From assembly GCA_963995525.1 (NCBI GenBank), contig OZ023206.1:74058506-74122505 (forward strand): DNA of 64,000 nt, in the 5' to 3' direction. The notes beneath the pieces are model-generated. The model saw only the letters and a program-made list of their open reading frames with translations, was not told where the DNA came from and made no database searches. This document shows positions 33,541 through 64,000 of this stretch, piece by piece; within the stretch, counting starts at the first letter, position 1, and every line of letters starts with the position of its first letter. The DNA comes from Escarpia spicata. Lineage: Eukaryota; Annelida; Polychaeta; Sabellida; Siboglinidae. Made by a program: the position numbers and the translations under genes.

Positions 33541-36500
33541 AATACTACTACTACTAATAATAATAATTTACTGCATTTCTCTGCGCCATAAATATGGCTG
33601 TTACTACCAGACAGAGGCGCATTACAATCCTTAAAAAAACATGGCATATAGCTATTAAGATTATAAAATAAAAATATATAAATAAATAAATAAAAAAATT
33701 AAATAAAAAAAGCATTAACATATACATACATATACATATCAATTGTAAATAGATGAGGATAGTAATAACAATAATACTAATTAAAATGACAAATTAAGAG
33801 AGAATAATATTATAATAGTTAAATGTAGATATTAAAAAGTCCGGAGTTCGCCACTGTCCTCACACATGTAATTTAAAGAAAAAAGCACGTTTAAAAAGAA
33901 ATGTCTTTAGTTGCTTCTTGAACACGATGAGGCAGTCTGTAGCACGCATGGCAAGGGGCAGATTGTTCCAGAAGCGTGGCGCGGCGCGTGAAAAAGCTTT
34001 GTCGCCTTGAGTACAAAGCTTGCAGCGCGGGTCCTCGAGCAGGTGAGCGTCGGCGGAGCGTAACGTGCGAGTGGGCTGGTGTCGAGTTAGCAGGTCCGCT
34101 AGGTATGACGCTCTCATGCCATGCAAACTGCGGAACGTAAGCAGGAGTAGTTTGTACTCGATGCACTGTTTAATCGCCAACAAATGAAGCGCAATTAGAG
34201 CAGGAGTGATGTGGTCGTGCTTCTTAGTTCTGTTTATGAGACGGGCTGCAGCATTTTGCACTCTCTGGAGTCTGGTGAGGAGATCGTCAGAAATCCCGTA
34301 AAGTAGGCCATTTCCATTGTCAAGACGAGACGTCACGTAAGTATGCACCATCATCTATGTCGTTTTCCTATCTAGAAGATTTCGAATTCTTCCAATACTG
34401 TGTAGATGGAAATATGCTACACGACACATGTAGTGTACATGGCTGTTCCTGGCCACAGTGGAAGTAGGCACGATGTTATTGGCAAGTTCTACGTGCGGCA
34501 TAGAAAGTTTGTTCTTGATTTGTGGCGAACACATCACAATAGCCTCTGTTTTGTCAGCATTCAGTTTGAGATTATTCATGCGCATCCAAGCTTGTATTTC
34601 AGCGACACATGCTTGTATGCGCTTCACAGCTTGGGTTGTGTCTTCCTCTGAGAGAAGACTGAAGGCGATGTAAAGTTGGGTATCATCAGCATATAGATGC
34701 CTGTTGATTCCATGCCGACGTGCGATATCTCCGAGTGGTGCTGTGTAACAAATGAACATGAGCGGGCCGAGAACGGAACCTTGCGGGACTCCGTACACCA
34801 CTGGACTTTCGGCTGATTCTCTTCCGGGCACTTGAGTACTCTGACTTCGGTTGGCCAAATACGAATCAAAACACGCAAGAGATGTTCCAGTTACTCCAAA
34901 ACGATCTCTGAGGCGTGATAACATGATCCCGTGGTAGATCGTGTCGAATGCTGCTGAGAGATCTAATAGCACAAGTATGGTAGTCTTGCGCTCATCAAGT
35001 ATACAAAGCAGATCGTTGCATACTCTCAGCAATGCAGTCTCAGTGCTGTGGTGCGGATGATAAGCAGATTGCATTTGCTCATAGAGTTCGTTTTCAGATA
35101 GGTGTTTGGAGAAACGGGCAGCAACGACCTTCTCTGCAATTGTTGACACAAAAGACAAGATATTTAGGTCATTTGGGTTCAGTGTTGCTTTATTCAAAAG
35201 AGGAGTTACGACAGCCTTTTTAAAGGCAGAAGGAAAGACTCCTGTCGTAATCGATAAGTTCACAATGTCGGTGATGACTGGTGCCAAAGTGGATGTTGGC
35301 CTTCAGCAGATGAGTCGGATCCAACTTATACGAATTACAAGCCGACTTGCCGACCAATTTGGTGATCTCCTGCGTCGTGGTCAGCAGGAACAATGGTAGA
35401 TGTGACAGGACAACAGAGGGTTCGTCCGGGCGCAGCAATGTGTGTTTGTCGTGAGTATCAAGATCGTGTCTGATAATGTCAATTTTGTTCGTGAAATAGT
35501 TGCTGAAGTTGTCAAGCAATTGTCCGGGGCGGTTATCGGGCAGTGGTGGCAGGTCTGTTGTATGCAGCAGAGAACCAACTATCCGATATAGAGTTTTGGG
35601 TTGCCAGCCTGTTCGTTGATTTTGTTGGTATAAAATGTGGCTCTGGCAGTGTACAACATCTTCTTCACTCGTTCTCTCTGGTTGATGAAGATTTTTCTGT
35701 CGATGGTCAACCTGGACAATCTCCATCTTCGCTCCTTCCGGCGCCTCTCCTTCCTGGCTGATAGAATGTCGCCATCGACTCACGGCACATCAGATCAGAT
35801 GGTGAGCCATTTCGTTTTAAGTGGTACGTGTTTTTCAAGTAGCTCGCCCAGGATAATGTTGTTTTGAGCTACAATGTCGTCTGATGGTTGTTCACGGTTT
35901 GTATTTAATGTGGAGTTCACAATATCCGACGAGAACGATTTGAGATTGATCGCCTTTATCTTGCGGTAAGTCTTATTTTCTCTCCGAAATGGAAGCTTGC
36001 GCATTGCAAGACGGCATTGCACAGCGTGGTGATCAGAAATAAGCTCGGCGACCACCGTGTCAGCCACACAATAGTTAGTACAGGCTATCACAAGGTCTAA
36101 AATATGGCCTTCTTGATGCGTTGGTTGTTGGACATACTGCGTCATGTCATGGCAGTGCAACATGTCACGGAAACGTTTCACGTGAACGTCAGTGTTAACG
36201 TCAAAGTGAACATTAAAGTCGCCAACTATAACAAGTTCACCAGGTAGTGTCGCATACGTGTCAAGAATATCTGCGAAGTAATTGAATAAATCGACAACCG
36301 ATGATCCGTTCTTCTTAGTTGGTGGTGGGCGATAAACAACAAGCAAGATTATACTTTTTCCGTGTGATGTTAATTTCGCGCTCATCGCTTCGAAGGACCG
36401 AATGTTGTTGAACATTTTCATGGCTGTTGTTTTGATCGAATCTTTATGCAGTATCGCAATGCCGCCACGACGACGACTGGATCTAGGATGGGTGAATGAG

Positions 36501-37060
36501 TTTATAACCAGGTGGTTTGAGAGCCCTGGTTACCAGGAGGTCGGAGTCTTTGTTAGAGAGCCAAGTTTCGGTAATGGCCACAACGTCGAGATCGTGTGCG
36601 CAGACGTGGTATAAAATGTCGGTTGTTTTGTTGCGAACAGATCTTGAATTGATAAGGCATGAGGAGGCTTGTGTGGTCGGACAGCATAGTGGATTTGGGG
36701 AAAGAGTCACGGAAATCAGGTTGTCATGTACTTGTGAAAATGTGCGCACGTAGTTGCTGGGTGGTCGAAAACCGATCACTGTGGAGATAGGTAGTTGATT
36801 ACTTCCACCTCGGCTCCACGCTTCGTTGGTCGTCTTGACGCAATGCCAAGTTCAAGTAAAATGTTCCAAGCACTGGCATTCAAGCGTGAAGAATTGGAAC
36901 GTGCCACTTGAGCCAGTTGATACAGCTGACAAGCTGTGTATGTGTAGCGGGCTTGGTCAGGCGTGATCACAGTGGGTGACATCACTGAAGCGTGATGGCA
37001 AAGCTGCACACTGGTTCTGCAGACTCGTTGGTAATGTCGCCGATTGTTGTCACGCACGAG
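33541..37060 (-). mobile_element. CR1/L2-like LINE in intron 1 of gene B, nearly full length but mutated
   Basis: Read on the minus strand: an N-terminal region (RRPTKRGAEVEV near 36,810), AP endonuclease (INSRSVRNKTTDIL near 36,630; VIVGDFNVHFD near 36,225; AELISDHHAVQCRL near 36,020) and a linker to about 35,300. Reverse transcriptase follows (AFDTIYHGIML; YGVPQGSVLGPLMF; HLYADDTQLYIAF near 34,690), then the C-terminal domain (TRLQRVQNAAARLINRTKKH). It ends with a TTA-rich 3' tail at 33,541-33,571. Damage includes at least one frameshift before RT (about 35,280), a missing piece near the NYRP motif, and a TAG at 34,355. Catalytic YADD is intact. Same strand as gene B. Confidence 0.9.
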
Positions 37061-42020: not shown

Positions 42021-42353
42021 ATACATTATTAAAATGCTAACATGTCATTAAGTACTTGTTAAAATAGCGCAGTTCACCTTCGCCCAGAGACATTAATAAA
42101 AACAACTCTGAAATTGCACTGTTGTACCTCAGTTAAAACATATAAAAATGTAAGATATCCACGAGCGTGTTCTGCAGCCATATAGAGGCGCGATGCAAGC
42201 AAAACAAACTACACATAAACAATGCATTACACAAACAAAAACACATTACACTTAGACAATGCATTTCTCATTTCTCGTAGTGTTGTTTACTGACGCTTAT
42301 TAGTAAGACTCATTAAATAAGATGGTATAACTTACTATTCAGAATATATATTG

Positions 42354-42525
42354 TGTCTAGTCCAAGTGAAGACAATGGTCTAGTCCAAGTGAGGACCAGG
42401 GTCTAGTCCAAGTGAAGACAAGATTCTAGTCCAAGTGAAGACAATAGTCTAGTCCAAGTGAAGACAAGTGTCTAGTCCAAGTGAAGACAAGGGTCTAGTC
42501 CAAGTGAAGACAACTATCTAGTCCT
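42354..42525 (+). repeat. 24-bp array, forward orientation (gtctagtccaagtgaagaca)
   Basis: Seven to eight units of about 24 bp with few changes. It is followed by 'gtcccggaattcagagagaa'. It pairs in reverse complement with the array at 42,757-43,010. Confidence 0.93.
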
Positions 42526-42756
42526 GTATGTCCCGGAATTCAGAGAGAAAGAGGAAAACAGCAACAACAACAAATCCAACAACAACGGAACTTGGATGCT
42601 GAACCAGACATACGATTTTAGTACATGGAACTTATTCACCAGCTACTTAGGTTTCTATTATTCAAACTGCTATGATACACAAATGGTACTAAGAACGGAA
42701 AATTATAAATATATATATATATATATATCAACTAGAGTTATTTATAATTATACTTG

Positions 42757-43012
42757 ACCCTTGTCTTCACTTGGACTAGACCTTTGTCTTCACTTGGACT
42801 AGACACTTGTCTTAACTCGGACTAGACACTTGTCTTCACTTGGACTAGACACTTGTCTTCACTTGGACTAGACCCTTGTCTTCACTTGGACTAGTCCCTT
42901 GTTTTCACTTGGACTAGACACTTGTCTTCACTTGGACTAGACGCTTGTCTTCACTTGGACTAGACACTTGTCTTCATTTGGACTAGACACTTATCTTCAC
43001 TTGGACTTCACT
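42757..43012 (-). repeat. 24-bp array, inverted orientation (tgtcttcacttggactagac)
   Basis: About eleven units, the reverse complement of the 42,354 array. It is followed by 'tttcctctttctccccgaat', itself the reverse complement of the motif flanking the left array. Motif and array are each inverted, yet keep the same left-to-right order. Confidence 0.93.
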
Positions 43013-45289: not shown

Positions 45290-47700
45290 TGCGTAAGTTG
45301 AAAATTATCAACCATCAGAAAATCAGCCATGACATTACTTGCTCTGATCTGACTGTTCAGCAAGCCAGCGAATCGACAACAGCAGCATTTTCTCGTTACA
45401 ACAACACTTTGTTATCAATACTCGACCAATATGCTCCTGCTAGAGAGTGCACCATCACCGTAAAAAAACAGCGTGCCATGGTACAACGCGGACATCATAG
45501 TTGCAAAAGCTAAACATAAGCGGCTTGAACATCAATACAGAAGGACACAATTAACAGTGGACCGAGACATGTATGTACAACAAAGAAACACAGTTAACAA
45601 CATGAGCCCTGAAGCGAAAAATCCATTACGAAAAAACATTGTCGGACGTCTTGAACCAAGCGCAATTCTACAACATCGCAAACAAGCTGCTGCATCGGAG
45701 TAACACAGCAACACAACCAACCTACGAATGTGCCGAATCGCTCGCCAACGACATTGCACACTACTTTGAGGATAAAATCCTGTGTATTCGCACCACACTA
45801 CAAGGGCCAGATGTCCATGGTGTGAGTACCGACTTTGTGAGCACAAATCACTCTGTCACAGACTGTCATCTCTCTACTTTCGTGCCTGTCACACAAGAAG
45901 AATCCGCGCAACTACTGAGCAAGTCATCATCGAAGACTTGCAAACTTGACACGATGCCTTCAAAAACTTGGTAAAAGAGTGCTCTGATGTCATGACGAAG
46001 CCTAGTATGAACATCATCAACAGGTGTTTGCTGGAAGGAATGCCTGATGAAATGAAAGTTGCTGTCATCACACCCATATTGAAAAAGGCAAGTCTTGATA
46101 GTGACATTTTGAAAAGCTATCGGCCTATTTCTAACATGTTCTTTTTATCAAAGTTAGTCGAGAGGATTGTGGCAAACCGGTTGATTGCACACATGCGTGA
46201 AAACAACCTGTATATGCCGTTGCAATCAGCGTACCGACAGGACTGTAGTACTGAAACTGCGCTTCTGCAAGTGCATGACAATGTGATTCGGTACATGGAC
46301 GAACGCAAAGGTGTGGTGCTGCTGCTAATTGATCTGAGCGCAGCATTTGATACAATTGACCATGCCATTCTTTTAAACACACTGAGCACCATCATCGGCG
46401 TCGACGATCACTGTTTGTCATGGTTTGCTGCCTACCTACAACATAACCAATACACGGTGTTGATTGCCGGTGAGCAGTTTAAACCTCACAGACTGACTTG
46501 CGGTATCCCGCAGGGGTCAGTTCTTGGACCATTACTGTTCACTATATATATATACGACTCCTCTCGCGTCGCTACTCAGCCACCATGGCATGGCTTACCA
46601 TCTAAATGCAGATGACATCCAACTTTTACAAGAATTTAGCCTGAGCGATAACATGTCACCCGACATTGCCATCAAGATTATCCTTCAATGGATGAACACC
46701 AACATGCTAAAACTCAATGATGATAAAACGGAGATCATTATCGTCCAACCGAAATCAGCAACCGAAAATGTTCTTCCTGATGGTGTAACTATCGGAAACG
46801 TTCGCGTGTTACCCAACACTTGGTTGTGACCTTTGATTCTAATATGTCCCTTGAGCGACACGTAACTAACATTTGTAGAAATACGTATTACCACCTCCAT
46901 AGCATTGGACGCATTCGTCGATATTTAGACAAAGAACACACAAAACAACTTGTGCATGCGCTACTCATTAAGCGAATTGACTGCTGCAATAATCTTCTTA
47001 AAGGATTGCCAGCGACAGTAATTGAGAAACTACATCGTGTCCAAAATGCATGTGCTCGTATCATAACGATGCGTTCGAAACGAGACCACGTCACGCCCAT
47101 GCTCTTTGAGCTGCACTGGCATCCTGTGAAGAGTCGCATTATTTTCAAGACCCTACTTCTCATTTTCAAATGCCTTCATGGGCTCGCACCTCCATATCTA
47201 TCAGCACTTCTCTCTCCGTATCGCCCAACACGCTGTCTACGCTACTCCGATCAGCTACTCCTTAAACAACCCACTACCCGAAATAAAATCGGCGTACGAG
47301 CATTCTCTTTTGCAGCTCCAAGAGCATGAAATCAACTATCACTTACAGTGCGCCAATGCACTAGTGTCAATCAATTTAAAGTGGCACTGAATACGCATCT
47401 TTTCACAAATTATTTTAACCTTCGATGATCGATGATCATCATTATTTATACCTTTATTTTAATTTATTTAGTATTATAATTAATCTATTTTATTGTTTTA
47501 ATGGTTTGCATAATTGTGTTTATTTATATATTTTAAGACAGTATAGTGGATTTTACTTAGTACTAATGATTGCATAGTATTTTTAAACTATATATCGCAT
47601 GATGTTATTTATTTATTTATTTGCATTAACCACTGTAAAGCGCCCCAGAACAATTATTTGGATGGGGCGCTATATAAGAAATAAATTATTATTATTATTA
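45290..47700 (+). mobile_element. CR1/L2-like LINE inserted in the gypsy element, 5' truncated
   Basis: The plus strand begins in the endonuclease-RT linker (KLKIINHQKISHDI) and continues PVTQEESAQLLSKSSSKTCK. RT follows (SYRPISNMFFLSKLVERIVA; AFDTIDHAILL; CGIPQGSVLGPLLF; YHLNADDIQLL), then the C-terminal block LHRVQNACARIITMRSKRDH and a tail GGGGCGCTATATAAG ending in (TTA)n at about 47,685-47,704. Several frameshifts. The catalytic box is NADD, not YADD. It separates gypsy RT from its C-terminal part. Confidence 0.88.
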
Positions 47701-52244: not shown

Positions 52245-53040
52245 AGTTCTTACACAAACATTTGTGATTTCTGAAACACAATAAAAGTAAGTGACACCAC
52301 CAGACGACGTGTGAAGCAGGCTAGCAGGCTAAGCAAAACAATAGAGTGTAAAGAACAGTGTGGAAGATCGGGAAAAGTGTATTTTGGAGAAACAGGAAAT
52401 ATTGATCTGTCGTAAATTCACAATACAGAATAATCGTAATAAAAAAACATAATACATTATGTTTACATTCGACTCGACAACGTGGTAAACATAAAATGTA
52501 TGGTATGAAAATAAAAGAATAGGGAGACTCCTACTGAGACTAATTATAGTCTGTCGTAGGAGCTACTCTAAATGGTAATTTAATCGATTATTTGATTTAT
52601 AAAAGAAAACAATCCTTAAAGCAATTGGTGCATTACTACACTATAAATGTATATTATGTTATGTCTTATATGTATTAAATATTACACTTACTAAAAACAC
52701 AAATGTACAAACATATGTTTTTTTTAAATTAAGTAATAATTTATATCAAGAGGCACAGAGTCAGCCAAACATATCCCTATTACATTTAGAACAGTTTTGG
52801 ACAGTACACTGCTCAGCAAGAGTGTTCAAATAGTAAAGCTTGGAATATGCTGAAAAGGCATGCAAACTGTGAGTGGCGATCTTGTCCTTAATTAAATCTG
52901 GTGCATTATTTATTGTATGTGAGTAGTATATAGACAAGGCACACCCTCGCCCAGCCCCTTTTTAGACCTAACTACGTGCATAAAAAACGTCCTTATCAAA
53001 ATCGGGAACCTACTTATAAAAAAAGATCAAAGGGTTTTGT
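52245..53040. other. AT-rich unassigned region
   Basis: No gene or repeat recognised. Low coding potential on both strands. Confidence 0.5.
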
Positions 53041-53054
53041 GTAACCTGAGAGAA

Positions 53055-53320
53055 ATCGGGAACCTACTTATAAAAAACGTGATTGATGGCCTGTCACTTT
53101 TGATTGATAATATTAAGGCGCCATCTAGCGATTATTTCAGTAACGGCGTCCCTAGTTACGGCGTCCCTAGTTACGTGATAACGCCATCTAGCGATTGTTC
53201 CAGTAACAGCGTCCCTAGTTACGATATTGGTTATAGCTGAAACCACCGTGGTTATAGCTAAAACCACCGTGGTTACGACATACGCTTATAGCTAAAACCA
53301 CCGTGGTTATAAATTAAATA
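53055..53320. repeat. Short tandem motifs: 'gcgtccctagttac' and 'ggttatagctaaaaccaccg'
   Basis: Two to four copies of each motif lie in succession. The second motif contains ccaccgtgg, an imperfect palindrome able to form a small hairpin. 'gccatctagcgatt' also recurs. Confidence 0.7.
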
Positions 53321-53362
53321 ATTAATTAATTCATAATTAATTAATTAATTAATTAATTATAT
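53320..53362. repeat. (TTAA)n run
   Basis: Perfect or near-perfect TTAA/AATT tetranucleotides, self-complementary. Confidence 0.9.
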
Positions 53363-53539
53363 ATAGGCCTGTCACTTTTTGATTGATGACCCTTCCTTGA
53401 GGTGTCACCACCTAGCGGTTATCCCAGTGACTAATTCCCTAGCGATCAACGTAGGACCTACCGTTGTGCTTACGTAAGCACTTATATAGCGTCCCTAGCG
53501 ACCGTTGTATATATATATATATATATATATATACGTAAT

Positions 53540-53905
53540 AGGCCTTTATATAACCACAACGGTTATAGCTAAAACCACTGTGGTTATAACGGCGCTCTAA
53601 ACCCATTGTGTGAGAATAACACCGCTGTACCCTATGTAGCAGTAGCCAGCAGCGCTGGCCTATGATCTGGCGGCCTAGTCGTCTTGCCACGACGTCTTAC
53701 GCACACCGAGCTCCACCTTCGTGCCAGTTAATGCCAGCACGATATATATATATATGCTTATGTAAGCCCGTATATAACCACAACGGTTATAGCGGCGCTG
53801 CGCTCTAAACCCATTGTGTGAAAATAACCCCGCTGTACCCTATGTAGCAGCAGCGGCGTGCGCTCGCAGCAGCAGCAGCCATGACCTATGATCCGGCGGC
53901 CTAGT
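53540..53905 (+). repeat. Two-copy direct repeat, about 220 bp apart
   Basis: The block 'tataaccacaacggttatag', 'gctctaaacccattgtgtga' and 'gctgtaccctatgtagcag' through 'ggcggcctag' occurs at 53,550-53,685 and again at 53,770-53,905. The second copy has extra CAG triplets. Confidence 0.85.
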
Positions 53906-54339
53906 TTCTAAATATAACCATGCGACTAGCCGGCTCTGTAACGGCGTTAATTTCAGCCGTGGCGCTATCAAAACGAAACGAATTCCATGCATGCATTTAG
54001 CGTTTAAAAGCAGTACTCAGCGGCCTGTTAAAGCAGGATGGTTATATGCGGTGGATAGACGAATGGACGCAAAATGGTGTAAGTTATGTTTTATTAATAG
54101 AAGTCACGGTGGCGTGAGCCAGGTCTGCGTAATGTTTGCTTGAGAGCCTCGTCCCTGCCGTAGCCGAGCGGCGCGTGAGTTGTCCCCGTCAAACTGCCGT
54201 TGTAGCATTTGTTGAGCGACCGGCTGGAATTAACGGCAAGTTTTCACACGACATACAGGTTTGTTGTAGAGTGTTGTGTGTAGGCAGGTGTATTTCCTTT
54301 CCACGTCGAGGCAGGTGGATTCTGTGAAATAATGCATAT

Positions 54340-54730
54340 GAATAATGAGGAGTTTCCCAAGAACTAAATCACTGTTATTAATATAAAAGTAAATAATAAA
54401 GAATAGTTTAATACAAGAATAGCATATAAATAATATAAAAAGTAATTAATATAAAACTTACCGATAGGATAAAAGACGAAATACCGCTGTACTAAATAAA
54501 ATAAAACTTACCGCTGTTCTTTGCATATGAATAATGGAGGAGAACTAAATCACTGTTATTAATATAAGAGGAGAACTAAATCAATAATTAATCAAGAATA
54601 GTAATTAATAAAGAATAGCATATTATTAATATAAAAGTAATTAATAAAGAATATAAAACTTACGGATAGGCTAAAAGACGACTTAACGCTCTACTAAATA
54701 AATAAAATAAAATAAAACTTACCGCTGATC
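54340..54730. repeat. AT-rich repeated block
   Basis: Three diverged copies of 'gaactaaatcactgttatta' with 'taaaacttaccg', spaced about 100-180 bp. It resembles, in part, the 170-bp module of the satellite region (taatgaggag.ttccc). Confidence 0.6.
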
Positions 54731-55390
54731 TTTCGTGGAAGGTTGCTCAGACGTTGTGCTGGCGGTAGCCATGATTGAATGAAAATGAGCAACGACCGTT
54801 GCATGCATGCATTATTTCCTAAAGTCATTTATGCGTTTAGCGCGCATGCGCGAAAATGTTAAGCGCGCATGCGCAAAAGTGAAGTAAAACATTGAAGGCA
54901 AAGAGATCAAAATGGCAATAAACGAACGTTTAAATCATAAAATGAACCGTTGTATACGCTTAGTTAGGGATCAGGCATATTGTGGAGTATTAATAATAGA
55001 GAAATTCGATGTGAAAGTCACATTTGACAACGAACGCGCTAACGTGAACGTCGAATTTTTTTCTTGACAATAACTAGAAACCGGATGGTGACGCAAGCCA
55101 GCTGTGGCGCGCGTGACGCTAATGGGGGTAGCTTATGTGAAGCTAGAACAATGCCATTTCAAAAACGATACACGAACTATAAAAGCATGAATTGAAGCGT
55201 TGTTTAGGATCAGTGGAGAGTAGGGATCTGTGTAGTGCCATTATATTATAGAAAATCGATGTAAATAACGTTTGTGAACGAAAAGCACTACATGACCGTT
55301 CATTTTTTTCTTTCCGAAAGCAAAGACATCCGAGACTAGTCAGTTATGCGTTAGGCGATTAGTAGGATCTGCTTTGTGCTGTAGGGGTGC

Positions 55391-55756
55391 GTGCGTAGCG
55401 ATAACGAGTTGGACGTTATCATCGAGGAGGCACTAGGCGTACCACACATCGAACCGCCGACGTACGAGAGTCTGTACACGGTGTCGCCAACACCGCCGGA
55501 AGTGATACAACGTCAAGTCATCGCGACGGGTCGGGGTCAGTTGGCCTTCCGCTATGAGCGGCACGCGATGTCCCCCCTCGCCGAACACCTCAGTGAGATG
55601 ATTCTGGAGAGGGCGCGCGATCGATGCGGCGCTGTATCTGGTCCAGTTCGTTTCGGACTGGCTGCTAGGCACGGACTGGCGCGACTACATCAACCGCGCT
55701 CTGCTGGAGTCGACCGTCCATACGTACATTCAGCGCAGGAACGGACTCGAATAGAA
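55391..55756 (+). CDS. Unidentified GC-rich ORF, possibly frameshifted
   Basis: From about 55,391 the frame reads ELDVIIEEALGVPHIEPPTY, SPTPPEVIQRQVIATGRGQL and AEHLSEMILERAR. After a probable single-base shift near 55,620 another frame continues AALYLVQFVSDWLLGTDW and RDYINRALLESTVHTYIQRR to TAG at 55,754. No in-frame ATG precedes it (TAG lies just upstream), so it may be an exon or a remnant. It is GC-rich beside AT-rich DNA, and has a PPTY motif and helical, amphipathic segments. I do not recognise the family. It could be an element-encoded protein or chance. Confidence 0.4.
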
Positions 55757-55869
55757 CATTATGCTTGCTTTGTTTGCTATAACATTGGTTAAAAATAAAA
55801 GCCGTTGTTTTGAATGTTGTACTACGATGGCGACGCTTAATAAAACGTTGAAAATGTACTTTCCGTTCG

Positions 55870-58800
55870 ACAGTCCCACACAGCTCCCCGAAAGTGCCAC
55901 ACAATTTCCTGACAGTCCCACACAGCTCCTTGACAGTCACACACAGCTCCCCGGCAGTACGTCTAGCTTGTTACATGTTTGCCTTCCGTACATGGTCTAG
56001 CTTGTTACACGTCTGCCTTCCATACATGTACTAGCTTTTTACTTATTTGCTATCCATACATGGTCTAGCTTGTTACATGTTTGCCTTCCATACACGGACT
56101 AGCTTGTTACATGTTTACCTTCCATACACGGTCTGGCTTGTTACATGTCTACCTTCCATACATGGTCTAGCTTGTTACATGTCTGCCTTTCATACATGGT
56201 CTAGCCTGTTACATGTCTGCCTTCCGTACATGGACTAGCTTGTTACATGTTGGCCTTCCGTACATGGGCTAGCTTGTTACATGTTTGCCTTACGTACATG
56301 GACTAGCTTGTTACATGTGTGCCTTCCATACACGAACAAGCTTGTTACATGTTTGCCTTACGTACATGGACTAACTTGTTACATGTTTGCCTTCCATACA
56401 CGGACTAGCTTGTTACATGTTTGCCTTACATACATGGACTAGCTTGTTACATGTTTGCCTTCCATACATGGTCTAGCTTGTTACAGGTCTGCCTTTCATA
56501 CATAGTCTAGCTTGATACGTGTTACCCTTCCGTACATGGACTAGATTGTTACATGTTTACCTTCCATACACGGACTAGCTTGTTACATGTTTACCTTCCA
56601 TACACGGACTAGCTTGTTACATGTTTGCCTTCCATACACGGACTAGCTTGTTACATGTTTGCCTTCCGTACATGGTCTGGCTTGTTACATGTCTGTCTTC
56701 CATACATGGTCTAGCTTGCTACATGTTTCCCTTCCATACATGGTGTAACTTGTGACATGTTTGCCTTCCATACATGGTCTAGCTTGTTACATGTTTGCCT
56801 TCCATACACGGACTAGCTTGTTACATATTTGCATTCCATACATGATCTAGCTTGTTACATGTCTACCTTCCATATATGGTCTAGCTTGTTACATGTCTGC
56901 CTTCCGTACATGGACTAGGTTCCCTGGCAGTCCCACACAGCTTCCGACAGTCACACGCAGTTCCCTGACACCCACACAGCTCCATGACAGTCCCACATAG
57001 TTTCCGACAGTCCCACACAGCTTCCCGACAGTCTCATACAGCTTCCGACAGTCCCACACAGCTCCATGACATTTATTTTATTTAGGTCTTATTATTTAGC
57101 AATAGACCGGTAAGTTGCCTTTTACACGAGTCCTATTAATTATCTTTATTAATTAATAAGAACCTCATTAGTCATGTTTTGATTTAATTTGGGAACCTCC
57201 TCATTAGTCACAGCGATAGAGCGGTAGGTTCTGGCAGTCTCACACAGCTCCATGACAGTCCCACACAGTTTCCGACAGTCCCACACAGCTCCATAACAGT
57301 ATTACACAGCTTCCTGACAGTCCCACACAGTTCCTGGCAGTCCCACACAGCTCCCCGACAGTCACACGCAGTTCCCTGACAGTCCCACACAGCTCCCTGA
57401 CAGCCCCACACAGTTTCCGACAGTCCCACACAGCTTCCCGACAGTCTCATACAGCTTCCGACAGTCCCACACAGCTCCATGACATTTATTTTATTTAGGT
57501 CTTATTATTTAGCAATAGACCGGTAAGTTGCCTTTTACACGAGTCCTATTAATTATCTTTATTCATTAATAAGAACCTCATTAGTCATGTTTTGATTTAA
57601 TTCGGGAACCTCCTCATTAGTCACAGCGATAGAGCTGTAGGTTCTGGCAGTCCCACACAGCTCCATGAGAGTCCCACACAGTTTCCGACAGTCCCACACA
57701 GCTTCCCGACAGTCTCATACAGCTTCCGACATTCACACGCAGTTCCCTGACAGTCCCACACAGTTACCCGACAGTCACACAAAACTCCCGATAGTCCCAC
57801 ACAGCTCTATGACAGTCCCACACAGTTCCTGGCAGTCCCACACAGCTTCCCGACAGTCCCACACAGCTCCCTGGCTACATGTCTCCCTTCCATACATGGT
57901 CTAACTTGTGACATGTTTGCCTTCCATACATGATCTAGCTTGTTACATGTTTGCCTTCCATACACGGACTAGGTTGTTACATATTTGCCTTCCATACATG
58001 AACTAGCTTGTTACATGTATGCCTTCCATATATGGTCTAGCTTGTTACATGTTTGCGTTTCATACATGGTCTAGCCTGTTACATGTCTGCCTTCCGTACA
58101 TGGACTAGGTTGTTACAGCTCCCTGACAGTCCCACACAGTTCCCTGACAGTCCCACACAGTTACCCGACAGTCACACAAAACTCCTGACAGTCCCACACA
58201 GCTCCATAACAGTATAACACAGCTTCCTGACCGTCCCACACAGTTCCTGGCAGTCCCACACAGCTCCATGACAGTCCCACACAGTTCCCCGACAGTCACA
58301 CACAGCTTCCCGACAGTCCCACACAGCTCCCTGAAAGTATCACACAATTCCCTGACAGTCCCACACAGCTCCCTGACAGTCACACACAGCTCCCCGGCAG
58401 TACCACACAATTCCCTGACAGTCCCACACAGCTATCTGACAGTCCCACACAGCTCCTAACAGTCCCACACAGTTCCCTTACAGTCCCACACAACTCTTGA
58501 CAGTCAAACACAGCTCCCTGACAGTCCCACACAGTTCCGGTCAGTCCCACACAGCTCCCTGACAGTCCCACACAGCTCCCTGACAGTCACACGCAGTTCC
58601 CTGACAGTCCCACACAGTTTCCCGACAGTCACACAAAACTCCTGACAGTCCCACACAGCTCCATAACAGTATTACACAGTTACCCGACAGTCCCACACAG
58701 CTCCATGACAGTCCCACACAGTTCCCGACAGTCCCACACAGCTTCCCGACAGTCCCACACAGCTCCCTACCACACAATTCCCTGACAGTCCCACACAGTT

Positions 58801-59850
58801 CCGGTCAGTCCCACACAGCTCCCCGACAGTCTCACACAGCTCCCTGAAAGTACCACACAATTCCCTTACAGTCACACACAGCTCCCTGTCAGTCCCACAC
58901 AGCTCCCTGACAGTCCCACACAACTCCCTGACAGTCTCACACAGCTCCGCCTGATAGTCCCAAAACTCCCGACAGTCCCACACAGCTCCCTGACAGTCAC
59001 ACACAGCTCCCCGGCAGTACCACACAGTTCCTGGCAGTCCCACACAGCTCCATGACATTTATTTTATTTAGTTCTTATTATTTAGCAATAGACCGGTAAG
59101 TTGCCTTTTACACGAGTCCTATTAATTATCTTTATTAATTAATAAGAACCTCATTAGTCATGTTTTGATTTAATTTGGGAACCTCCTCATTAGTCACAGC
59201 GATAGAGCGGTAGGTTCTGGCAGTCCCACACAGCTCCATGACAGTCCCACACACTTCCCGACAGTCCCACACAGCTTCCCGACAGTCCCACACAGCTCCC
59301 TGGCTACATGTCTCCCTTCCATACATGGTCTAACTTGTGACATGTTTACCTTCCATACATGGTCTAGCTTGTTACATGTTTGCCTTCCATACACGGACTA
59401 GGTTGTTACATATTTGCCTTCCATACATGAACTAGCTTGTTACATGTATGCCTTCCATATATGGTCTAGCTTGTTACATGTTTGCCTTTCATACATGGTC
59501 TAGCCTGTTACATGTCTGCCTTCCGTACATGGACTAGGTTGTTACAGCTCCCTGACAGTCCCACACAGTTACCCGACAGACACACAAACTCCTGACTGAC
59601 AGTGCCACACAGCTCCCTGACAGTCTCACACAGCTCCCTGACAGTACCACGCAGTTCCTCGTCAGTCACATACAGGGGTTCTGTATGTATGTATGTATGT
59701 ATGTATGTATGTAGGAGCCGTCGCACCACGGCGCCGATACTCGTCTAACTCGTATAACTAACTAACTAACTCGTCTAACTCGTAGGGGGGTGGCGGGGGG
59801 TTCTGTATGTATGTATGTAGGTATGTAGGGTAATAAAAACATACAATTGT
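55870..59850. repeat. Left arm of large palindrome: 21-bp and 33-bp satellites plus 170-bp modules
   Basis: 33-bp units (core tagcttgttacatgtttgcc; 56,000-56,915, 57,880-58,110, 59,305-59,545) alternate with 21-bp units (core acagtcccacacagctccct; 55,875-55,960, 56,930-57,070, 57,235-57,480, 57,650-57,875, 58,110-59,050). A 170-bp unique module starting gacatttattttattta occurs three times (57,068, 57,479, 59,053). The reverse complement is present from 60,560 on. Confidence 0.95.
59672..59825. repeat. GTAT microsatellite and G-rich segment bordering the spacer
   Basis: (GTAT)n runs flank a unique stretch with ggagccgtcgcaccacggcg and a G-run block ggggggtggcggggggt. The whole is mirrored at 60,597-60,760. 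Confidence 0.9.
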
Positions 59851-59874
59851 TTTCAGACTGACAGGAACTGTGTG

Positions 59875-60560
59875 GGATTGCCAGGAAGATGTGTAATACT
59901 GTTATGGAGCTGTGTGGGACTGTCAGGCGGAGCTGTGTGAGACTGTCAGGGAGTTGTGTGGGACTGTCAGGGAGCTGTGTGGGACTGATAGGGAACGAAC
60001 TATGTGGTACTGTCAGGGAGCTGTGTGTGACTGTAAGGGAACTGTGTGGGACTGTCAGGAGCTGTGTGTGATAGTCAGGAGCTGTGTGGGACTGTCAGGG
60101 AGCTGTGTGGGACTGTTAGGGAATTGTGTGGTACTGCCGGGGAGCTGTGTGTGACTGTCAGGGAGCTGTGTGGGACTGCGCGCTTTTACGTGTATAGTAG
60201 TAGTAATACAAAACAATGGGATTGCCAGGAAGATGTGTAATACTGTTATGGAGCTGTGTGGGACTGTCAGGCGGAGCTGTGTGAGACTGTCAAGGAGTTG
60301 TGTGGGACTGTCAGGGAGCTGTGTGGGACTGACAGGGAACGAACTATGTGGTACTGTCAGGGAGCTGTGTGTGACTGTAAGGGAACTGTGTGGGACTGTC
60401 AGGAGCTGTGTGTGATGGTCAGGAGCTGTGTGGGACTGTCAGGGAGCTGTGTGGGACTGTTAGGGAATTGTGTGGTACTGCCGGGGAGCTGTGTGTGACT
60501 GTCAGGGAGCTGTGTGGGACTGCGCGCTTTTACGTGTATAGTAGTAGTAATAAAAAAAAA
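59875..60560 (+). repeat. Two direct 344-bp repeats at the palindrome centre
   Basis: 'gggattgccaggaagatgtg' occurs at 59,874-59,893 and 60,218-60,237, and 'gcgcgcttttacgtgtatag' at 60,178 and 60,522: an exact 344-bp offset. Each copy holds about fourteen 21-bp satellite units in the right-arm orientation. Copies differ at only a few bases. Confidence 0.95.
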
Positions 60561-63500
60561 AACTTGAAAACAATTGTATGTTTTTATTACCCTACATACC
60601 AACATACATACATACATACAGAACCCCCCGCCACCCCCCTAAGAGTTAGACGAGTTAGTTAGTTAGTTATACGAGTTAGACGAGTATCGGCGCCGTGGTG
60701 CGACGGCTCCTACATACATACATACATACATACATACATACATACATACATACAGAACCCCTGTATGGGACTGACGAGGAACTGCGTGGTACTGTCAGGG
60801 AGCTGTGTGAGACTGTCAGGGAGCTGTGTGGCACTGTCAGTCAGGAGTTTGTGTGTCTGTCGGGTAACTGTGTGGGACTGTCAGGGAGCTGTAACAACCT
60901 AGTCCATGTACGGAAGGCAGACATGTAACAGGCTAGACCATGTATGGAAGGCAAACATGTAACAAGCTAGACCATATATGGAAGGCATACATGTAACAAG
61001 CTAGTTCATGTATGGAAGGCAAATATGTAACAACCTAGTCCGTGTATGGAAGGCAAACATGTAACAAGCTAGACCATGTATGGAAGGCAAACATGTCACA
61101 AGTTAGACCATGTATGGAAGGGAGACATGTAGCCAGGGAGCTGTGTGGGACTGTCGGGAAGCTGTGTGGGACTGTCGGGAAGTGTGTGGGACTGTCATGG
61201 AGCTGTGTGGGACTGCCAGAACCTACCGCTCTATCGCTGTGACTAATGAGGAGGTTCCCAAATTAAATCAAAACATGACTAATGAGGTTCTTATTAATTA
61301 ATAAAGATAATTAATAGGACTCGTGTAAAAGGCAACTTACCGGTCTATTGCTAAATAATAAGAACTAAATAAAATAAATGTAATGGAGCTGTGTGGGACT
61401 GCCAGGAACTGTGTGGTACTGCCGGGGAGCTGTGTGTGACTGTCAGGGAGTTGTGTGGGACTGTCGGGAGTTTTGGGACTATCAGGCGGAGCTGTGTGAG
61501 ACTGTCAGGGAGTTGTGTGGGACTGTCAGGGAGCTGTGTGGGACTGACAGGGAGCTGTGTGTGACTGTAAGGGAACTGTGTGGGACTGTCAGGGAATTGT
61601 GTGGTACTTTCAGGGAGCTGTGTGAGACTGTCGGGGAGCTGTGTGGGACTGACCGGAACTGTGTGGGACTGTCAGGGAATTGTGTGGTAGGGAGCTGTGT
61701 GGGACTGTCGGGAAGCTGTGTGGGACTGTCGGGAACTGTGTGGGACTGTCATGGAGCTGTGTGGGACTGTCGGGTAACTGTGTAATACTGTTATGGAGCT
61801 GTGTGGGACTGTCAGGAGTTTTGTGTGACTGTCGGGAAACTGTGTGGGACTGTCAGGGAACTGCGTGTGACTGTCAGGGAGCTGTGTGGGACTGTCAGGG
61901 AGCTGTGTGGGACTGACCGGAACTGTGTGGGACTGTCAGGGAGCTGTGTTTGACTGTCAAGAGTTGTGTGGGACTGTAAGGGAACTGTGTGGGACTGTCA
62001 GGAGCTGTGTGGGACTGTCAGATAGCTGTGTGGGACTGTCAGGGAATTGTGTGGTACTGCCGGGGAGCTGTGTGTGACTGTCAGGGAGCTGTGTGGGACT
62101 GTCAGGGAATTGTGTGATACTTTCAGGGAGCTGTGTGGGACTGTCGGGAAGCTGTGTGTGACTGTCGGGGAACTGTGTGGGACTGTCATGGAGCTGTGTG
62201 GGACTGCCAGGAACTGTGTGGGACGGTCAGGAAGCTGTGTTATACTGTTATGGAGCTGTGTGGGACTGTGAGGAGTTTTGTGTGACTGTCGGGTAACTGT
62301 GTGGGACTGTCAGGGAACTGTGTGGGACTGTCAGGGAGCTGTAACAACCTAGTCCATGTACGGAAGGCAGACATGTAACAGGCTAGACCATGTATGAAAC
62401 GCAAACATGTAACAAGCTAGACCATATATGGAAGGCATACATGTAACAAGCTAGTTCATGTATGGAAGGCAAATATGTAACAACCTAGTCCGTGTATGGA
62501 AGGCAAACATGTAACAAGCTAGATCATGTATGGAAGGCAAACATGTCACAAGTTAGACCATGTATGGAAGGGAGACATGTAGCCAGGGAGCTGTGTGGGA
62601 CTGTCGGGAAGCTGTGTGGGACTGCCAGGAACTGTGTGGGACTGTCATAGAGCTGTGTGGGACTATCGGGAGTTTTGTGTGACTGTCGGGTAACTGTGTG
62701 GGACTGTCAGGGAACTGCGTGTGAATGTCGGAAGCTGTATGAGACTGTCGGGAAGCTGTGTGGGACTGTCGGAAACTGTGTGGGACTGTCATGGAGCTGT
62801 GTGGGACTGCCAGAACCTACCGCTCTATCGCTGTGACTAATGAGGAGGTTCCCGAATTAAATCAAAACATGACTAATGAGGTTCTTATTAATTAATAAAG
62901 ATAATTAATAGGACTCGTGTAAAAGGCAACTTACCGGTCTATTGCTAAATAATAAGACCTAAATAAAATAAATGTCATGGAGCTGTGTGGGACTGTCGGA
63001 AGCTGTATGAGACTGTCGGGAAGCTGTGTGGGACTGTCGGAAACTGTGTGGGGCTGTCAGGGAGCTGTGTGGGACTGTCAGGGAACTGCGTGTGACTGTC
63101 GGGGAGCTGTGTGGGACTGCCAGGAACTGTGTGGGACTGTCAGGAAGCTGTGTAATATTGTTATGGAGCTGTGTGGGACTGTCGGAAACTGTGTGGGACT
63201 GTCATGGAGCTGTGTGAGACTGCCAGAACCTACCGCTCTATCGCTGTGACTAATGAGGAGGTTCCCAAATTAAATCAAAACATGACTAATGAGGTTGTTA
63301 TTAATTAATAAAGATAATTAATAGGACTCGTGTAAAAGGCAACTTACCGGTCTATTGCTAAATAATAAGACCTAAATAAAATAAATGTAATGGAGCTGTG
63401 TGGGACTGTCGGAAGCTGTATGAGACTGTCGGGAAGCTGTGTGGGACTGTCGGAAACTGTGTGGGACTGTCATGGAGCTGTGTGGGTGTCAGGGAACTGC

Positions 63501-64000
63501 GTGTGACTGTCGGAAGCTGTGTGGGACTGTCAGGGAACCTAGTCCATGTACGGAAGGCAGACATGTAACAAGCTAGACCATATCTGGAAGGTAGACATGT
63601 AACAAGCTAGATCATGTATGGAATGCAAATATGTAACAAGCTAGTCCGAGTATGGAAGGCAAACATGTAACAAGCTAGACCATGTATGGAAGGCAAACAT
63701 GTCACAAGTTAGACCATGTATGGAAGGGAAACATGTAGCAAGCTAGACCATGTATGGAAGACAGACATGTAACAAGCCAGACCATGTACGGAAGGCAAAC
63801 ATGTACCAAGCTAGTCCGTGTATGGAAGGCAAACATGTAACAAGCTAGTCCGTGTATGGAAGGTAAACATGTAACAAGCTAGTCCGTGTATGGAAGGTAA
63901 ACATGTAACATGCTAGTCCATGTACGGAAGGGAAACATGTATCAAGCTAGACCATGTATGAAAGGCAGACCTGTAACAAGCTAGACCATGTATGGAAGGC
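60560..64000. repeat. Right arm of large palindrome (continues past window)
   Basis: Inverted copy of the left arm. Paired positions sum to about 120,424 near the centre and 120,457 at the outer end, a net 33-bp (one-unit) indel. Modules reappear at about 61,208, 62,812 and 63,229. At the window edge 'atgtatgaaaggcagacctg' still matches the left arm near 56,490, so the arm extends further. Confidence 0.95.

What the first reader, a model, noticed from the sequence alone, without database searches (positions are those of the whole stretch)
56457..64000. Very large near-perfect palindrome (arms at least 3.4 kb) made of satellites
Sequence from about 59,850 leftwards is repeated as its reverse complement from about 60,560 rightwards, up to the window edge. 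Arms differ only by sparse substitutions and small unit-sized indels; unique 170-bp modules occur three times per arm in mirrored positions. Palindromes of this size are unstable or gene-converted structures. Alternatively, a long-read hairpin or missing-adapter artefact may have been assembled as an inverted repeat. The arm differences argue somewhat against a simple artefact.
Basis: seen in the sequence. Interest (0 to 1): 0.8.

Follow-up and report, generated by a model that had tools for sequence, protein, structure and literature searches.

The report
Giant palindromic Maverick-type foldback transposon
The mirror-image DNA is a 15-kilobase mobile element with two nearly identical 7-kilobase halves, one of many such copies spread through an animal genome, and it appears to be a stripped-down relative of virus-like Maverick elements.

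Summary
The palindrome is real and about twice as long as reported. With the right flank added, its arms run 52,922-59,855 and 60,565-68,135 (6.9 and 7.6 kb, 34 substitutions between them). The whole is 15,214 bp, ends in (AGT)2...(ACT)2 and is flanked by an exact 6-bp duplication, TATGTG. It is a transposon: 18 of 19 other loci fetched as best inner-arm hits are palindromes too, and 14 of 16 copies with both ends fetched have exact 6-bp target duplications. An assembly artefact is not a tenable general explanation.

Ends and duplication size are those published for Mavericks. Asymmetric 15-17-kb relatives in the same genome share the subterminal sequence and carry a 201-aa gene and a family-B DNA polymerase. 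The one whose ends were read has a TIR of only ~0.44 kb. The palindrome's arms carry a remnant of the small gene.

Arms are copied from each other: variable terminal bases match at both ends of a copy, and one copy has the same LINE insertion in both arms. No integrase was found; capsid genes were not tested. How the palindrome arises (snap-back replication or repair copying) is inferred.

The parts
52916..52921 (.). left copy of the 6-bp target-site duplication TATGTG (right copy at 68,136-68,141, outside the window)
52922..59855 (+). left arm, 6,934 bp
52922..52945 (+). terminal AGTAGTATATAG...: (AGT)2 motif plus a segment that varies between copies but matches the other end of the same copy
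52961..53320 (+). subterminal sequence shared with asymmetric polymerase-bearing relatives
   Evidence: (1327 first-look candidates, 40 scored)
55385..55789 (+). remnant of a gene of unknown function (mostly 201-217 aa in relatives); the middle is missing in the copies where it was read
55963..56918 (+). 34-bp satellite array, about 28 units (mirrored from 63,539 to beyond the window edge, where it is longer)
56919..59658 (+). 21-bp minisatellite blocks, interrupted by shorter 34-bp arrays (57,876-58,117; 59,305-59,546) and by the modules below
57066..57230 (+). module 1, left arm
   Evidence: (622 first-look candidates, 40 scored, all 40 identical over 162 bp)
57485..57647 (+). module 2, left arm
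59058..59220 (+). module 3, left arm
59856..60564 (.). 709-bp centre with two ~344-bp direct repeats; 12 of 19 other loci show a single ~315-bp stretch of it, in either orientation
60565..64000 (-). right arm, part inside the window (continues to 68,135; 7,571 bp in all)
61216..61384 (-). module 3, mirrored
62810..62972 (-). module 2, mirrored
63227..63393 (-). module 1, mirrored

Best explanation
This is one copy of a recently amplified family of non-autonomous 'foldback' elements that works like, and probably derives from, a Maverick/Polinton-type self-replicating element. SHOWN: mobile palindromes with (AGT)2/(ACT)2 ends and 6-bp target duplications; asymmetric relatives that share the subterminal ~0.3 kb at 96-97% and carry an intact small gene and a family-B DNA polymerase gene; a remnant of that small gene in each arm, in the same inward orientation; arms copied onto each other over kilobases in at least one copy. 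INFERRED: both arms descend from the gene-bearing end of such a relative; the relatives supply polymerase (and some source supplies integrase) in trans. During protein-primed, strand-displacing replication a single strand that carries only one end folds back on itself and is copied into a symmetric molecule; this is then replicated and integrated like a full element. After integration, hairpin or break repair can again copy one arm over the other. Satellite arrays change by whole units within an arm and are then mirrored.
For: Mobility: 18 of 19 further loci are palindromes. Six of 6 copies and 8 of 10 have exact 6-bp duplications. A 162-bp module gives 12 inward-facing and 0 outward-facing pairs within 9 kb among 40 scored hits, all 40 identical. 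Maverick link: PMC8097293 (passages) gives (AGT)2//(ACT)2 ends and perfect 6-bp duplications for vertebrate Mavericks; PMC12220804 (passages) says rve integrase typically makes 6-bp duplications. Polymerase: three pieces of the array unit L060/L061 align to successive parts of the same database proteins (P0008 residues 57-638, 545-750 and 938-1061), which carry PF03175 (4 of 5 rescanned match, three above the cut-off). Among 150 scored hits each, 60 of 150 small-gene hits have a polymerase hit 2.7-5.3 kb downstream on the same strand, 0 in both controls. Of 10 inverted end pairs among 40 scored ends, 4 enclose the small gene once and 3 of those also the polymerase. The asymmetric relative whose ends were read has (AGT)2 ends, TSD AACGTT and a TIR of ~0.44 kb. 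Arm copying: terminal bases 8-24 total 2 mismatches within 15 copies against a minimum of 36 in 100,000 random pairings; mirrored 3,247-bp LINE with 10 differences and identical junctions.
Against: Beyond the first ~0.36 kb the gene-side end of the C6 relative (~0.83 kb of it read) is not colinear with the arm; only short matches at 82-84% follow further in, so descent of the whole arm from that end is not shown. No integrase or capsid gene was found: Pfam scans of 10 open frames in the C3 array unit and 5 at C1:49.79 Mb gave no integrase inside an element; one rve frame lies ~0.5 kb outside the C1 element. The rve genome search scored only 150 of 5849 candidates; by eye none lies in the four asymmetric elements. 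The interiors of relatives sharing the 96-97% subterminal sequence could not be read. Pfam itself matches this genome's polymerase pieces weakly or not at all. L018 has no target duplication and L028's left end lacks the motif. L026 has lost most of one arm yet keeps its duplication, so the palindrome is not needed for integration. The data do not separate copying before integration from copying after it in most copies.
Confidence: 0.8

Rival explanations
1. Assembly or library artefact: a missing-adapter or hairpin read assembled as an inverted repeat.
For: No raw reads could be checked. Such artefacts are known (recalled), and long near-identical arms are hard to assemble.
Against: Same architecture at 18 of 19 fetched loci. 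Fourteen of 16 copies have exact 6-bp duplications at ends that lie 6.5-15.2 kb apart where measured. Arms differ by substitutions and unit-sized indels, and the flanks on the two sides of the window copy differ.
Confidence: 0.03
2. An ordinary inverted segmental duplication of satellite DNA, homogenised by gene conversion, not a mobile element.
For: Unit-sized indels, arm conversion, and the mirrored ~77 bp of flank at L018.
Against: Dispersed copies, shared precise ends and target duplications.
Confidence: 0.03
3. A foldback element of another DNA-transposon superfamily (Galileo/FB/MULE type), with the Maverick-like ends being convergence.
For: Long TIRs built of tandem repeats are the hallmark of Galileo and Tetris (passages). 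No integrase found.
Against: Target duplications are 6 bp, not the 8-10 bp reported for Tetris. Ends carry (AGT)2. The subterminal sequence is shared with polymerase-bearing elements.
Confidence: 0.1
4. Same element, but the palindrome is made and maintained only in the chromosome, by break repair copying one end over the other, as proposed for Galileo, without any replication step of its own.
For: L018 carries ~77 bp of mirrored flank outside its ends, which points to copying after integration. LINE mirrored in both arms at C588. The Galileo paper proposes such copying and mentions expanded Polinton inverted repeats (passages).
Against: 14 of 16 copies kept intact target duplications, so copying seldom runs past the ends. 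Private variants present in both arms (9 states) beside one-arm variants suggest matching arms at landing, which replication or a conversion before the last transposition would both give.
Confidence: 0.37

Closest known systems
Maverick/Polinton elements (PMC8097293, PMC12220804, PMC6431247: passages read)
   Same: (AGT)2//(ACT)2 ends, exact 6-bp target duplications, size within the published range, related elements with a family-B polymerase gene.
   Different: TIR occupies almost the whole element (6.9/7.6 kb) instead of 46-1,447 bp (mean 402) in vertebrate Mavericks; arms filled with satellites; no intact gene recognised in the arms; integrase not found, capsid genes not tested. PMC12220804 accepts TIRs of 100 bp-8 kb in polinton-like viruses, so long TIRs alone are not new.
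Foldback elements Tetris (PMC4079207) and Galileo (PMC3573991) of Drosophila (passages read)
   Same: Long inverted arms with internal tandem repeats, structurally fluid; Galileo arms of one copy 98-100% alike.
   Different: Arms up to 1.7 kb (Tetris) or about 0.3-1.2 kb (Galileo) against about 4-8 kb here; 8-10 bp target duplications (Tetris) against 6 bp; other mobilising machinery.
Symmetric defective adenovirus genomes and self-complementary AAV (recalled; a search, listed no paper on them)
   Same: Palindromic derivatives of a linear replicon that keep one end twice; thought to arise by fold-back copying.
   Different: Those are virus preparations; here the palindromes are dispersed, integrated and amplified in an animal genome.
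Tlr elements of Tetrahymena (recalled, no call)
   Same: Maverick-related elements with long inverted repeats containing tandem repeats.
   Different: TIRs under 1 kb and a coding interior, as recalled.

Membership tests
Maverick/Polinton | terminal inverted repeats with conserved (AGT)2 or (AG)3 end motif | tested here: met
   AGTAGTA at both ends in 14 of 16 copies (L017 right end has AATAGTA; L028 left end lacks the motif)
Maverick/Polinton | 6-bp target-site duplication | tested here: met
   14 of 16 copies exact; also the C6 relative and a PolB element on C1
[quoted passage not shown]
   absent from the palindrome; present in linked relatives as part of PF03175-bearing proteins; protein priming not testable
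Maverick/Polinton | retroviral-type integrase | tested here: inconclusive
   not found inside the elements scanned; genome search scored 150 of 5849 candidates, none seen in the four relatives
Maverick/Polinton | capsid, ATPase and protease genes | not tested
   interiors of relatives sharing the 96-97% subterminal sequence were not read; no dedicated search run
Foldback elements | long TIRs with internal tandem repeats forming most of the element | tested here: met
Foldback elements | 8-10 bp target-site duplications as in Tetris | tested here: not met
   6 bp in 14 of 16 copies
Assembly artefact | unique to one locus, no element ends | tested here: not met

The most novel reading that the evidence does not exclude
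Snap-back defective genomes of a protein-primed Maverick-type replicon have become a self-sustaining transposon family: palindromic parasites of the full elements that keep one end twice, renew both arms from one template at each round, and carry kilobases of satellite (and even a LINE) as mirrored cargo. This would be an animal-genome counterpart of defective viral genomes.
Probability: 0.3. Interest if true: 0.8.

Novelty: new variant of a known kind. Interest (0 to 1): 0.62.

Why it matters
It joins two element types that are usually kept apart, foldback elements and Mavericks, and gives a natural experiment on how the ends of protein-primed elements are copied. Long palindromes are thought to be unstable (recalled), yet here many recent copies with arms of about 4-8 kb persist, and each copy records the arm-copying process in mirrored variants. 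It also shows a route by which satellite arrays are dispersed as transposon cargo.

Tried and rejected
Artefact and plain segmental duplication: rejected on dispersed copies and target duplications. Rfam on the window: no match at gathering thresholds. One exact 28-base pattern of the 34-bp unit is absent from viral contigs; an exact 18-base match to the 21-bp unit occurs in 1 stretch of genome contigs and was not followed up; 57,051-57,240 has no plasmid match. Pfam and PDB give nothing for the arm gene remnant. Species: not identified. One homologue (P0003) lies on a contig deposited under a tubeworm endosymbiont, and I saw passages of the Paraescarpia genome paper (PMC8476170; 1.09 Gb, 14 pseudochromosomes), but its 12,710 contigs do not match this assembly's 1,097; only a weak lead. 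Literature: seven searches on Mavericks or foldbacks listed no title on palindromic Mavericks; listings are capped and I saw only listings and the passages named, so this is no proof of absence. Tree-type resolution in 720 bp of arm was too low to rank copies. A third AGT at the L012 right end first looked like replication slippage; it is explained by the target duplication ACTGCG itself and is not used.

Caution on counts: 716, 622, 1327, 1855 and 2226 are first-look candidates, not confirmed copies; 40, 40, 40, 150 and 150 were scored. together give 53 clusters of hits at a 9-kb gap. In that script one position was typed with the wrong contig (C5 for C8:5457432); it is a lone hit, so the count should not change. 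In one search, most of the one-arm total of 88 (61 at L012 and 5 at the window) come from rows of unequal length, not variants; a few of the 8 at L024 may too.
Full report
OBSERVATION. Self-alignment of the window confirms the inverted repeat: 56,457-59,855 against 60,565-64,000, 98.2% identity, 25 substitutions (9 transitions, 16 transversions) and three indels of 21, 12 and 4 bp. The arms are made largely of a 21-bp minisatellite, a 34-bp satellite and three ~165-bp modules, with two ~344-bp repeats at the centre.

EXTENT. The genome is held (1.06 Gb; window at C2:74,058,506-74,122,505). Adding the next stretch shows that the palindrome continues: 52,922-59,855 against 60,565-68,135, arms of 6,934 and 7,571 bp with 34 substitutions and indels including 170 and 408 bp, i.e. 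5 and 12 units of 34 bp. The outer 3 kb is largely non-satellite. The ends read AGTAGTATATAG...CTATATACTACT, and the flanks carry TATGTG on both sides.

A MOBILE FAMILY. The inner arm has 40 scored candidates with near-full hits at 96-100% (716 first-look candidates), in 37 clusters. Of 19 other loci fetched as best hits, 18 are long palindromes; L026 is not, having lost most of one arm. Both ends were fetched for 16 copies. Fourteen have exact 6-bp target duplications: TATGTG, ACTATA, TACATA, GATGTT, ACCGTC, AACATG, GAGGAT, ACTGCG, GACGGT, GACGGG, AATGAC, CGCCAC, TGGGTG, TTCCTC. L018 has no duplication but ~77 bp of flank repeated in mirror image. In L028 the left piece shows no AGT motif. 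Five copies other than the window's measure 6.5-12.4 kb end to end. The 162-bp module is identical at all 40 scored places of 622 candidates, with 12 inward and no outward pairs within 9 kb: a young burst.

WHAT THE ENDS SAY. In the passages seen of PMC8097293, vertebrate Mavericks have 5'-(AGT)2//(ACT)2-3' ends, perfect 6-bp duplications, sizes of 12.7-24.6 kb and TIRs of 46-1,447 bp, and the end repeats are linked to the jumping-back step of protein-primed replication. In PMC12220804, rve integrases typically make 6-bp duplications.

RELATIVES WITH GENES. The subterminal 360 bp has 1327 candidates, 40 scored. The arm's gene remnant (55,385-55,789) matches a 203-aa database protein at 64% identity over 58% of the query; the middle is missing in the copies where the remnant was read. 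An intact relative of that gene has 150 scored hits of 1855 candidates, mostly in open frames near 201 aa. A polymerase piece has 150 scored hits of 2226 candidates, in open frames up to 1,375 aa. Among these lists, 60 of 150 small-gene hits have a polymerase hit 2.7-5.3 kb downstream on the same strand; the opposite-strand and shifted controls give 0. Fifteen of 40 scored ends have the small gene 3.3-4.1 kb inward. Of 10 inverted end pairs, 4 enclose the small gene (3 of them the polymerase too), each seen once; the other six, the window's among them, enclose no scored hit. The ends of one asymmetric element (C6) are (AGT)2 with TSD AACGTT and a TIR of about 0.44 kb; they match the arm at 96-97% over its first ~0.36 kb, but further in, the ~0.83 kb read on the gene side is not colinear with the arm.

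THE POLYMERASE. A 618-aa piece of the C3 array finds 705 database proteins; by my count about 85 of the 120 listed carry PF03175, and on rescanning 5 of them 4 match, three above the cut-off. Three array pieces, the genome query among them, align to successive parts of those proteins: on P0008 residues 57-638, 545-750 and 938-1061 at 52, 63 and 70% identity. The genome query finds 50 of the 120 proteins, the other two 119 and 120. Pfam alone matches these pieces weakly or not at all. A separate element on C1 has a PF03175 match (E 9.5e-8), AGTAGTA ends and TSD CATAGG.

ARM COPYING. Bases 8-24 of the ends differ between copies by 6.4 on average, but within 15 copies the two ends differ by 2 in total; the best of 100,000 random pairings gives 36. 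At C588 a 3,247-bp LINE lies at the same site in both arms, with identical junctions and 10 differences, while the inner arms differ by 1.5% and the outer by 0.25%. A LINE insertion is one event, so the arm was copied afterwards; the ends and target duplication of that copy were not resolved. In 13 copies with both arms compared over 720 bp, private states occur in both arms (9) as well as in one arm, so copies probably landed with matching arms and then drifted. At L018 copying ran past the element's end into the flank, which points to repair in the chromosome in that copy.

MECHANISM. Shown: mobile palindrome, Maverick-type ends and duplications, polymerase-bearing asymmetric relatives with the same subterminal sequence, arm copying. 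Inferred: descent of both arms from the gene-bearing end; mobilisation in trans; origin by fold-back copying of a displaced single strand carrying one end; renewal of both ends from one template. The rival, repair copying after integration as proposed for Galileo (passages), is not excluded, and both may act.

MEMBERSHIP. It works like a non-autonomous Maverick and has foldback architecture. Membership in Maverick/Polinton rests on ends, target duplication and the relatives' polymerase; integrase was looked for and not found inside the elements, capsid genes were not tested. It is not a Tetris-type foldback element by target duplication.

Noticed in passing
window 42,353-43,007: A second, small foldback: 23-bp repeats (GTCTAGTCCAAGTGAAGACAAGG) at 42,353-42,524 and inverted at 42,752-43,007, about 91% identical, ~230 bp apart.
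   Followed up: partly
L060/L061 (C3:52,175,600-52,193,700): A head-to-tail array of at least four 17.2-kb units with the same subterminal sequence at 88%, the small gene, polymerase pieces and a Rep_fac-A_C domain.
   Followed up: partly
L058+L025+L059 (C588): Palindromic copy with a LINE mirrored in both arms; a natural marker of arm copying.
   Followed up: yes
L044/L045 (ends of the L018 copy): About 77 bp outside both ends is repeated in mirror image, with no target duplication.
   Followed up: partly
L026 plus L031 (C3:11.89 Mb): 6.5-kb copy with one arm mostly lost but intact ends and target duplication.
   Followed up: partly
L062/L063 (C1:49.79 Mb): Another polymerase-bearing element, about 11 kb, AGTAGTA ends, TSD CATAGG, no blastn similarity to the palindrome's arm.
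   Followed up: partly
window 34,355-36,529 and 45,950-46,615: LINE-type reverse transcriptase and endonuclease fragments.
   Followed up: no
C5:1,443,197-1,458,278: Inverted end pair whose subterminal sequence is tandemly repeated outside each end, itself mirrored.
   Followed up: no
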